A stretch of 64,000 nucleotides of DNA from Microtetraspora niveoalba (GTDB lineage Bacteria; Actinomycetota; Actinomycetes; Streptosporangiales; Streptosporangiaceae). Shown piece by piece: positions 45,932 to 48,473 of the stretch (position 1 is the first letter of the stretch; each line of letters starts with the position of its first letter). The notes below the pieces were generated by a model. The model was not told the origin of the DNA and did not search any database. It saw only the letters and a program-made list of their open reading frames with translations. Location: the NCBI RefSeq assembly GCF_001570405.1, contig NZ_BBYM01000019.1, positions 188,323 through 252,322 of the forward strand, given 5' to 3'. Position numbers and translations under genes: made by a program.

Positions 45932-46431
45932 CTCAACCAACAAGGGTAGGCGCTTCGGCGACCCCGGAACGCCTCCACCGGCCCGTCCCGGACGGGACGA
46001 CGGCGCTCCAATCCGCGCGGCCCGACGGCGGCCCGACAATGGCCGGAAACAGGCGGTCAAAGGATCATGTGCGGCCCGTTTCCGGCCCCTCCCCCTTTGC
46101 GCGACTCCCGCCCGCCGGGCCCGCGTCCCGGCGGCGCCCCAAGCGAGCCCGGGTGAACGGCGAAGCGCGCCTCATTCCCCTCGATTCGCGCGGCGTGTAA
46201 CCGGGTCGCATTCACCCCGGTCGCGCGGCGCGGCATCCGGCCGCATTGACCGCAGTCACGGGCGCGCCGCCCGATTCGGGATCTTGGTCACCTGCCCCTT
46301 GCGACCGGTCATGGCGCTACGAGAAGATCTCCGAACGACTTTGGGCCAGAAGATGACACCCATTACGGGTTGGCACCATTTTGGTCACATTTCCCTCACG
46401 CATTGAGAAATGACGATATGAGGAGGCTGTG
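45932..46431. other. Intergenic region between divergent miaB and the APC permease
   Basis: About 500 bp with no gene on either strand. It contains an inverted repeat at 46041-46087 and, from about 46320 onward, lower-GC sequence that should include the permease promoter. No riboswitch family was recognised. Confidence 0.45.
46041..46087. repeat. 10-bp inverted repeat upstream of the APC permease
   Basis: GGCCGGAAAC (46041-46050) and GTTTCCGGCC (46078-46087) are exact inverse complements 27 bases apart. They lie about 345 bp before the permease start. It may be an operator pair or the base of a structured leader. Confidence 0.4.
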
Positions 46432-47838
46432 GTGCAGCCCCAGGAGAATGTCGAGCAGTTCGGATACCGGCAGGAATTACGCCGCCGCATCGGGCTGAGC
46501 GACCTGGTGTTCTACGGTCTGATCTTCATGGTGCCGATCGCGCCGTTCGCGATTTTCGGCAACGTATTCCACATCTCCAAGGGGATGCCCGCCCTCACGT
46601 ACGCCATCGGGATGGTCGCGCTGCTGTTCACGGCGGCCTCCTACGCGCAGATGGTCAAGGCGTTCCCGCTGTCCGGATCGGTCTACAACTACGCCGGTCG
46701 CGGCATCGCCGCCCCCATCGGTTTCATGACGGGATGGGCGATCCTGCTCGACTACATCCTCGCCCCGGGCCTGCTTTACCTGGTGGCGTCGATCGCCATG
46801 AACGCCTCCGTTCCGGCGGTGCCGGTCGCGGTGTGGCTGGTCTTCTTCGTGGTGGTCAACACGGTCATCAACATGCGCGGCATCCGGATGACCATCTCGC
46901 TCACCAAGGCGCTGATCACGGTCGAACTGGTCGTGCTGGGCCTGTTCCTCGCGGCGGGCGTCTGGGCGCTCATGCAGGGCAAGGGCCGCGGGTTCAGCCT
47001 CACGCCGCTGTTCAACCCGGACACGTTCTCCTGGCCCGTCGTGTTCGGCGCGGTCTCCGTCGCCGTCCTGTCCTTCCTCGGGTTCGACGGCATCAGCATG
47101 CTGGTCGAGGAGGCCAAGGGCGGCTCCGCGCAGGTCGGCAAGGCCATGCGGCTGGCGCTGATCCTGGCCGGCGTGCTGTTCATCGTCCAGGTGTGGGTCG
47201 CCGCGCTGCTGGTCCCCGACCCGGCCGGCCTGCTGGCCAACGGCGACCAGGCGGGCACCGCCTTCTACGACACGGCGGAGGTGGCCGGAGGAAGCTGGCT
47301 CGCGCACCTCACGTCCACCGCGACGGCCGTCTCCTGGGGCCTCGCCGACACGATGGTGGCGCAGGTGGCCGTGTCCCGGCTCCTCTACGCCATGGCGCGC
47401 GACCGGCAGCTCCCGTCCTTCCTGGCCAAGGTGTCGGTCAAGCATTCGGTGCCGACCAACGCCATCCTCTTCGTCGCCGCGCTGTCCATCGTCCTCGGCC
47501 TGTGGATGTCGAACCGCGCCGACGGCGTGGACCTGCTCAGCAGCCTGATCAACATGGGCGCGCTGATCGCCTTCATCGTGCTGCACATCTCGGTGATCAC
47601 GCACTATGTGGTCCGCCGCAAGTCGACCGACTACTGGGCGCACCTGGTCATGCCGCTCATCGGCATGGCGATCCTGATCTTCGTCGTCGTGAACGCCAAC
47701 ATCCTGGCCCAGAAGGTGGGCCTGATCTGGCTCGCCATCGGCGCCGTGGTGCTGCTCGTCCTGTACCTCAGGGGACGCCGGCCGGCGCCGGCCGGCCTGG
47801 CCGCGACGGGCGAGCACGTGATGGAGGAGCAGCGATGA
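46432..47838 (+). CDS. APC superfamily amino acid permease
   Basis: A 468-residue transporter with 12 predicted membrane segments. Family features: LSDLVFYGLIFMVPIAPFAIFG, SYAQMVKAFPLSGSVYNYAGR in segments 1-3, FLGFDGISMLVEEAKGG, and AVSRLLYAMARDRQLPSFLAKV. It imports an amino acid or amine with protons or by exchange. AGGAGG (46421-46426) is five bases before the GTG at 46432 and only two before the GTG at 46429, so the later codon is preferred. The stop overlaps the GOLPH3-like gene in an ATGA. Confidence 0.9.
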   Translation: MQPQENVEQFGYRQELRRRIGLSDLVFYGLIFMVPIAPFAIFGNVFHISKGMPALTYAIGMVALLFTAASYAQMVKAFPLSGSVYNYAGRGIAAPIGFMTGWAILLDYILAPGLLYLVASIAMNASVPAVPVAVWLVFFVVVNTVINMRGIRMTISLTKALITVELVVLGLFLAAGVWALMQGKGRGFSLTPLFNPDTFSWPVVFGAVSVAVLSFLGFDGISMLVEEAKGGSAQVGKAMRLALILAGVLFIVQVWVAALLVPDPAGLLANGDQAGTAFYDTAEVAGGSWLAHLTSTATAVSWGLADTMVAQVAVSRLLYAMARDRQLPSFLAKVSVKHSVPTNAILFVAALSIVLGLWMSNRADGVDLLSSLINMGALIAFIVLHISVITHYVVRRKSTDYWAHLVMPLIGMAILIFVVVNANILAQKVGLIWLAIGAVVLLVLYLRGRRPAPAGLAATGEHVMEEQR

Positions 47839-48473
47839 ACCGGCCGCCGCTCTATCACGACCTCTATCTGATCGCCCACGACCAGACCGGGAAGCCGCTG
47901 GTCCACCTGTCCTCGCTGAGCGTCGGACTGGCGGGCGCGGTGCTGCTCGACCTGGCCCTGAGCGGTCGCCTGGACATCACCCAGGGCCGGCTCGCGGTGT
48001 ACGACCGCAGCCCGATCGGCGACATGATCGCCGACAGCCTCGTCCCGGTGATCCTCAAGGATCGCGACAACCGGGACACCAGGTTCTGGATCAAGAAGGT
48101 GGCCGAGGACGTCTACGACCGCGCCTGCGGCGGCCTGGTCGCCGCGGGCGTCCTCACCAAGGTGACCCGGCGCCGCATGGGCGTGATGGCGCAGACCCGA
48201 TACCAGCCCGCCGACATCGCCCCCGTCGTACGGGCTCGCGCCGGGGTGCGGGGCGCGGCCGAGACCGGCGAGCAGGCGGACGCGCGGTGCGCCGCGCTGT
48301 GCGGCCTGGTGGGCGTGCTGCGGCTGGAGGGGGCGCTCCACCTCGCCCAGCCGTCCGGCCAGCTCGTCGGCCGCCTGCGCGCCATCGCCCGGGAGTACCC
48401 GCGTCCGGTCAACGAGGTCATCGGCGTCGTCGAGACCCTCATCACCGAGAACGCGATCGCCCTCTACCGCTGA
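47835..48473 (+). CDS. GOLPH3/VPS74 (GPP34) family protein
   Basis: A 212-residue protein of the GPP34 fold: LYHDLYLIAHDQTGKP opening, GLAGAVLLDLALSGRLDI, DRSPIGDMIADSL and the C-terminal LCGLVGVLRLEGAL and VIGVVETLITENAI. Eukaryotic members bind phosphoinositides and sort glycosyltransferases; bacterial members are of unknown role. Its ATG overlaps the permease stop, so the two are translationally coupled. It may help place or stabilise the permease at the membrane; this is inference. Confidence 0.88.
   Translation: MNRPPLYHDLYLIAHDQTGKPLVHLSSLSVGLAGAVLLDLALSGRLDITQGRLAVYDRSPIGDMIADSLVPVILKDRDNRDTRFWIKKVAEDVYDRACGGLVAAGVLTKVTRRRMGVMAQTRYQPADIAPVVRARAGVRGAAETGEQADARCAALCGLVGVLRLEGALHLAQPSGQLVGRLRAIAREYPRPVNEVIGVVETLITENAIALYR

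What the first reader, a model, noticed from the sequence alone, without database searches (positions are those of the whole stretch)
46432..48473. Amino acid permease translationally coupled to a GOLPH3-like protein
GPP34 proteins bind membranes in eukaryotes, and the bacterial role is unknown. An ATGA overlap with a transporter suggests a stoichiometric partner, for example for membrane placement of the permease.
Basis: partly seen in the sequence, partly recalled or inferred. Interest (0 to 1): 0.5.

Follow-up and report, generated by a model that had tools for sequence, protein, structure and literature searches.

The report
Golgi-adaptor-like protein paired with amino-acid transporters
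A bacterial relative of a Golgi sorting protein is encoded next to an amino-acid-type transporter, and one branch of this protein family keeps such a partnership in many actinomycetes with two different transporter lineages, so it probably helps those transporters work.

Summary
Observation confirmed: an APC-family permease (PF13520, 46432-47838) and a GPP34/GOLPH3-like protein (PF05719, 47835-48473) overlap by ATGA. The overlap is not conserved: of 30 intact orthologous pairs, 15 overlap, 10 have gaps of 5-26 nt and 5 gaps of 122-127 nt. The pairing is conserved. In 297 family genomes the close GPP34 occurs in 32; 31 of these have the close permease directly upstream (one frameshifted), and that permease was not found without it. 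The genome's only other GPP34 is directly followed by a different APC permease. Both GPP34s fall in one subfamily: in a tree 34 of 39 members adjoin an APC gene, against 2 of 40 rows outside; the branch has moderate support. The two permease lineages are not sisters and gene order is reversed. A functional GPP34-APC link is well supported. Physical contact and mechanism are inferred: the predicted GOLPH3 fold is clear, but GOLPH3's PI4P residues and a client-binding acid are not kept, and a joint structure model was inconclusive. Seven paper searches found no report of the pairing.

The parts
46421..46426 (+). AGGAGG, likely ribosome-binding site of the permease
   Evidence: read from sequence; kept in the nearest relatives (AGGAGC in one)
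46432..47838 (+). APC-family permease, type A (468 aa, GTG start; 46429 is an alternative start)
   Evidence: PF13520 136.3 bits, PF00324 107.2 bits; orthologues
47823..47829 (+). GGAGGAG inside the permease end, likely ribosome-binding site of GPP34
   Evidence: read from sequence
47835..47838 (+). ATGA stop/start overlap
   Evidence: not conserved among orthologous pairs
47835..48473 (+). GPP34 / GOLPH3-fold protein, APC-linked subfamily type A (212 aa)
   Evidence: PF05719 129.6 bits; AlphaFold2 pLDDT 93.3, pTM 0.90; GOLPH3 9qpq Z 19.3
47877..47906 (+). codons of H15 to H24, the two histidines that mark the subfamily (H15 in 93% of A+D rows against 10% of others; H24 in 76% against 0%)
   Evidence: alignment A2
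48162..48191 (+). residues 110-119, predicted beta-hairpin tip with the basic RRR(M/L)G stretch of type A
   Evidence: DSSP strands 107-112 and 120-125; column counts

Best explanation
The protein belongs to a GPP34 subfamily dedicated to APC-superfamily permeases. Shown by comparison: the two are inherited as a pair; the subfamily goes with two separate APC lineages (type A, permease then GPP34, as in the window; type D, GPP34 then permease) in opposite gene order; this genome has one pair of each type. Inferred: GPP34 folds like GOLPH3 and sits on the cytosolic face of the cell membrane, held by its hairpin, where it touches its permease and sets its stability, clustering or activity. It would work like the adaptor-client step of GOLPH3 in the Golgi but without COPI and without PI4P. 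The direction of the effect (stabilise, place or gate) is open. Odds: functional link about 0.9; direct physical contact about 0.55; control of permease level, place or activity as the main role about 0.45.
For: Family sample of 297 genomes: GPP34-A in 32, permease A adjacent in 31 of these (G245 frameshifted), none found with permease A and no GPP34-A. The pair lies beside miaB only in the five Microtetraspora-group loci and among other genes elsewhere, so it keeps together in different surroundings. In named genomes 19 of 21 close GPP34 loci have the permease directly upstream, 0 of 24 more distant GPP34 loci have it within 6 kb. The closest permease paralogue, type B, had no GPP34 hit in any of the 23 loci fetched. 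Own genome: 2 GPP34 genes, 14 PF13520 genes, both GPP34 genes adjoin one. Type D: 67 of 74 GPP34 places in 260 family genomes have the permease downstream (65 by coordinates; 2 more on inspection); 18 of 18 type-D places of the 246-genome class sample likewise (coordinates compared by eye). Survey of 80 GPP34 loci: 9 of 9 subfamily members adjoin an APC gene, 0 of 71 others. Trees. Shared marker residues of A and D. Fold.
Against: No contact was shown; AlphaFold2 of a read-through fusion of the type-D pair gave pTM 0.74 with a floppy linker and the tool reports no interface score. GPP34 can persist without the permease: 2 type-A loci (L070, L120) and 7 of 74 type-D places. Permease D occurs without GPP34: 17 of 78 places by coordinates; of 10 of these inspected one did have a GPP34. 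Spacing is not conserved. PI4P residues and acid D247 of GOLPH3 are replaced. The permease N-tail charge hardly differs between A and GPP34-free B (means 1.09 and 0.91), and type-A-specific permease residues lie mostly in membrane helices as judged by hydropathy, which fits a changed substrate as well as a changed partner. Support for A+D as one clade is moderate (95/61).
Confidence: 0.55

Rival explanations
1. Shared pathway without contact: GPP34 and permease are made together because both serve one physiological state (for example wall or membrane stress), and co-transcription keeps them adjacent.
For: Orphan GPP34 and orphan permease genes exist. A GPP34 outside the operons studied here, SCO4440, acts with a D-Ala-D-Ala carboxypeptidase on peptidoglycan (PMC12402492, passages). 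Type D is commonly followed by a ~195-aa ORF, an acetyltransferase where scanned, so partners other than the permease exist.
Against: The same GPP34 subfamily goes with two separate APC lineages and both gene orders, which a shared regulator or pathway alone would not require; 71 surveyed GPP34 loci outside the subfamily have no APC neighbour.
Confidence: 0.3
2. Lipid or ligand sensor: the pocket that binds PI4P in GOLPH3 carries histidines in this subfamily and senses another headgroup or the transported solute, and GPP34 gates the permease accordingly.
For: H24 lies at the place of GOLPH3 W81 and H15 is nearly fixed in the subfamily.
Against: No ligand was tested; the histidines may be structural. 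The residue mapping rests on one profile alignment.
Confidence: 0.15
3. Chance neighbours kept by vertical descent, with no link of function.
For: Gene pairs can persist within a family without selection; most type-A pairs are in one genus, Nonomuraea-like g4.
Against: Patchy presence with both genes present or absent together, different surroundings, a second pair with another permease lineage in the same genome.
Confidence: 0.05

Closest known systems
GOLPH3 / Vps74 (eukaryotic Golgi adaptor, PF05719; PDB 9qpq, 3kn1, 2zih)
   Same: Fold over 200 residues at 2.6 A, Z 19.3; peripheral protein linked with membrane proteins (GOLPH3 binds membrane-proximal basic cytosolic tails, PMC8421267 and PMC12494035, passages)
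   Different: 20% identity; no N-terminal extension for COPI (model residues 1-201 align with GOLPH3 57-298); W81, R90, R171, R174 become H24, A33, E91, Y94; D247 becomes R163; partner is a multi-pass transporter, not a type II enzyme
SCO4440 of Streptomyces coelicolor (GOLPH3-like)
   Same: Bacterial GPP34 in a conserved gene pair with a membrane protein (SCO4439 carboxypeptidase) (PMC12402492, passages)
   Different: Partner is a wall enzyme, not a permease; its sequence was not compared here, so its subfamily is not known to me
Type B APC permeases of the same family (operon with Peripla_BP_6 protein and FmdA_AmdA amidase)
   Same: About 60% identity to the window's permease; type A branches from within them
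   Different: No GPP34 hit in any of the 23 loci fetched; neighbours identified in L041 are a binding-protein-like gene and an amidase

Membership tests
GPP34 / GOLPH3 family (PF05719) | Pfam profile above gathering score | tested here: met
   129.6 bits against 29.1
GPP34 / GOLPH3 family (PF05719) | GOLPH3/Vps74 fold | tested here: met
   AlphaFold2 model, Foldseek E 1.1e-9 to 9qpq, Z 19.3 over 200 residues
GOLPH3 as PI4P effector | PI4P residues W81, R90, R171, R174 (named in PMC13408441, passages) | tested here: not met
   H24, A33, E91, Y94 at the aligned places; A33 fixed in all 24 type-A and 17 type-D rows
GOLPH3 as COPI adaptor | N-terminal extension that binds COPI | tested here: not met
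   The 212-aa protein starts at the equivalent of GOLPH3 residue 57
GOLPH3-type membrane protein | Beta-hairpin that inserts in the membrane | tested here: inconclusive
   A hairpin is predicted (strands 107-112, 120-125) with a basic tip; insertion not tested
GOLPH3-type client adaptor | Acidic groove that binds basic client tails (D247 and others) | tested here: inconclusive
   D247 is R163 in the window, R in 18 of 24 type-A rows and G in 17 of 17 type-D rows; the other acids were not mapped
GPP34 subfamily linked to APC permeases (proposed here) | H15, H24, L30, A90, G157 and C-terminal R | tested here: met
   Window has H15, H24, A90, G157, R212; at column 30 it has V where 90% of A+D rows have L
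APC superfamily (AA_permease_2, PF13520) | Pfam profile above gathering score | tested here: met
   136.3 bits against 27
APC superfamily (AA_permease_2, PF13520) | Transport of an amino acid or amine | not testable with these tools
   No NCBIfam equivalog reached its cut-off; substrate unknown

The most novel reading that the evidence does not exclude
GOLPH3-like proteins are ancient client adaptors of the cytosolic membrane face: in actinomycetes one GPP34 subfamily is a dedicated accessory subunit of APC transporters, which shows that the fold served membrane-protein partners without a Golgi, COPI or PI4P, and that a GPP34 can change transporter lineage while keeping the partnership.
Probability: 0.3. 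Interest if true: 0.85.

Novelty: new variant of a known kind. Interest (0 to 1): 0.62.

Why it matters
What bacterial GPP34 proteins do is almost unknown, though 112 of 246 sampled genomes of the class carry one. A subfamily with a fixed partner gives the first concrete client to test, in an ordinary soil actinomycete. If contact is shown, it would mean that the GOLPH3 fold acts as a membrane-protein adaptor outside eukaryotes and would offer a one-partner model for a cancer-linked human protein. Amino-acid permeases with peripheral cytosolic partners of this fold are, as far as I could search, not described.

Tried and rejected
ATGA overlap as evidence of stoichiometry: rejected, spacing varies. 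Permease N-tail as a GOLPH3-type basic client tail: no support, charge nearly equal in A and B. A cytosolic patch specific to type A in the permease: 17 type-A-specific positions, mostly in hydrophobic helices, no clear patch; topology judged by hydropathy only. Net charge of GPP34: no difference between groups. First context labelling of all GPP34 loci missed pairs because single HMM domains were used; redone. Alignment A3 for a fused type-A model placed half of each GPP34 row on the permease and was not used; A4 aligned well but held no permease rows and was not used. Fused type-D model: inconclusive. Neighbours of GPP34 genes outside the subfamily: 111 neighbours scanned, led by HTH/DUF5753 pairs (10), response regulators (8), sortases (5) and M24 peptidases (5); only the first 25 of 110 families are shown, with no amino-acid permease among them. 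An extra structural likeness of GPP34 to winged-helix regulators (Z about 5) is within the range the tool calls common. Tree caveats: I used 79 of 194 rows; 10 long-branch rows and 4 near-copies of orphan rows were left out beforehand; the tree of all 194 rows (read out) gives the same split, 54 of 63 subfamily rows beside an APC gene and 3 of 131 outside, local support 94.

Full report
What is there. The window holds an APC permease gene (46432-47838) whose stop codon overlaps the start codon of a GPP34 gene (47835-48473) as ATGA, each with a good ribosome-binding site. Pfam gives AA_permease_2 at 136.3 bits and GPP34 at 129.6 bits, both far over their cut-offs. NCBIfam names no specific transporter: the best match, BcaP-like, scores 119 bits against a cut-off of 690. 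Upstream on the other strand lies a miaB gene, downstream a histidine kinase and response regulator and then glutamate-type ABC transporter genes (miaB and ABC names are from sequence recognition, not a family search).

How far the pair is kept. In 297 genomes of the family, the GPP34 protein has a close relative (E at most 1e-30) in 32 genomes of 6 genera; the permease has a close relative (72% identity or more over its length) in 30, plus one, G245, that was first seen as a part and is full-length but split over two frames. These 31 genomes are all among the 32. All 32 loci were read: 31 have the permease directly upstream on the same strand, only G274 lacks it. Gaps in the 30 intact pairs: -4 nt in 12, -1 in 3, 5-26 in 10, 122-127 in 5 (start codons chosen by script). 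In the named collection, 19 of 21 close GPP34 loci (Microtetraspora, Sphaerimonospora, Streptosporangium, Nonomuraea) have the permease directly upstream and two Nonomuraea do not; 24 more distant GPP34 loci have none within the 6 kb held. miaB lies beside the pair only in the five Microtetraspora-group loci; elsewhere the flanks differ (some contigs end near the pair). The p value for co-occurrence, 3e-41, ignores relatedness and should not be taken at face value.

A paralogue without GPP34. A permease about 60% identical (type B) occurs in the same and many other genomes. In 23 type-B loci fetched, a search with the window's GPP34 found nothing (flanks 0-10 kb, one short contig). In one locus scanned, it sits between a Peripla_BP_6 protein and an acetamidase/formamidase-family protein. 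Type A branches from within type B (A clade 100/100).

A second pair in the same genome. This genome has only two PF05719 matches. The other one (L048:9848-10489) is followed after 33 nt by another APC permease (L048:10523-11995, PF13520 85 bits) and an acetyltransferase. With 14 PF13520 genes in 8.5 Mb, roughly 7,600 genes by my estimate, two out of two is not expected by chance. In 260 family genomes this type D gives 74 GPP34 places in 67 genomes; 65 have the permease downstream on the same strand by coordinates, 64 of them within 166 nt and one at 545, and two more on inspection of all nine exceptions: 67 of 74. Of 78 permease-D places with at least 53% identity, 61 have the GPP34 by coordinates; of the 17 without, 10 were inspected and one has a more divergent GPP34, the other 7 were not looked at. 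In the class sample, 18 of 18 type-D places are followed by the permease; the nineteenth match of that search is the window's own type-A gene (by eye).

One subfamily, two permease lineages. 112 of 246 class genomes have a GPP34. From the part of that table that is shown (about 100 bits and more) I took by hand 80 loci, roughly every second row plus a few, leaving the known type-A rows out. Nine adjoin an APC gene (eight downstream on the same strand, one divergent), 71 do not. In the careful tree all A and D rows, L220 and five orphan relatives lie on one side of a branch (39 rows, 34 beside an APC gene; support 95/61), and 40 rows on the other side, of which two adjoin an APC gene, the divergent GPP34s of some Nonomuraea. 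A and D share residues rare in other GPP34s: H15 93% against 10%, H24 76% against 0%, L30 90% against 2%, A90 88% against 14%, G157 90% against 17%, C-terminal R 76% against 0% (24 A, 17 D, 59 other rows); the window itself has V at 30. In the permease tree, A sits with B, and D in another clade, with GPP34-free APC genes of this genome branching between them (several of those rows have very long branches, and of the 11 other own APC genes 8 could be placed). So the same GPP34 subfamily goes with two separate permease lineages, in opposite gene order. Whether this is one ancient link with a change of permease or two recruitments is open.

Structure. AlphaFold2 of the window's GPP34 on 100 rows: pLDDT 93.3, pTM 0.90. 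Best match human GOLPH3 in the COPI coat, 9qpq: Foldseek E 1.1e-9, Z 19.3, 2.6 A over 200 residues, 20% identity. Human GOLPH3 binds membranes by a hydrophobic hairpin (190-201) and W81, R90, R171, R174, and clients by an acidic membrane-facing groove (PMC13408441, PMC12494035, PMC8421267; passages). By the profile alignment the window has H24, A33, E91, Y94 there and R163 in place of D247. Loss of R90 is general in bacterial GPP34 rows (R in 4 of 59 others), so only H24, E91, Y94 and R163 are peculiar. The hairpin tip is basic in type A (RRR followed by M or L and G), hydrophobic (VLG.FP) in most others and shortened in type D. Five Nonomuraea GPP34-A proteins lack about 30 residues (roughly 50-80), and one has an insertion there, so that part is dispensable for the pairing.

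Test of contact. Only type D offers several loci where the two genes are in frame. Ten read-through fusions with 21 unfused rows gave pLDDT 78.1 and pTM 0.74 with a disordered linker. The tool gives no interface score; this neither supports nor excludes contact. Differences between type A and type B permeases are mostly in membrane helices, and N-tail charge is nearly equal: no sign of a GOLPH3-like basic-tail client.

Verdict. The pairing is real, old within the family and recurrent; a functional link is strongly supported. The mechanism, a peripheral partner on the cytosolic face that controls the permease, is the most likely reading but is inferred from fold and gene context. SCO4440 of S. 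coelicolor is the only bacterial GPP34 for which I saw a phenotype (PMC12402492, PMC13238533; passages). Searches for GPP34 with actinobacteria (1 paper), GOLPH3 with Streptomyces (10), GPP34 with permease (0), GPP34 family/bacteria/GOLPH3 (246 papers with two of the terms, 20 listed), GOLPH3-like with actinomycete (2), GPP34 with operon (6; those whose titles I saw concern pesticidal and other toxins, apparently another use of the name) and 'GPP34 domain-containing' (0) gave no paper on the pairing; the library lacks most subscription papers.

Noticed in passing
window 46410-46421: A three-codon reading frame ATG ACG ATA TGA just before the permease ribosome-binding site; the same in two relatives, one codon changed in a third, absent in a fourth.
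   Followed up: partly
L071, L110, L122, L123 (Nonomuraea-type loci): The type-A permease is flanked on its other side by a second, divergently transcribed GPP34 (partial in L110) that falls outside the APC-linked subfamily in the tree.
   Followed up: partly
L121, L122, L123, L071, L073: GPP34-A lacks about 30 residues around positions 50-80 and overlaps the permease by one base.
   Followed up: partly
L233:1265-3220 (family f21): A copper amine oxidase gene lies divergently beside a type-D GPP34-permease pair, and similar-sized ORFs lie there in related loci; hints at an amine substrate.
   Followed up: no
L048:12013-12582, L238:5647-6255: An acetyltransferase (PF00583) follows the type-D permease; ORFs of about 195 aa follow it in most inspected loci, also where GPP34 is missing.
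   Followed up: partly
L105 (G245): Type-A permease split over two reading frames beside an intact GPP34: pseudogene or sequencing error.
   Followed up: partly
GPP34 loci outside the subfamily (alignment A6): Frequent neighbours are HTH/DUF5753 genes, response regulators, sortases and M24 peptidases.
   Followed up: no
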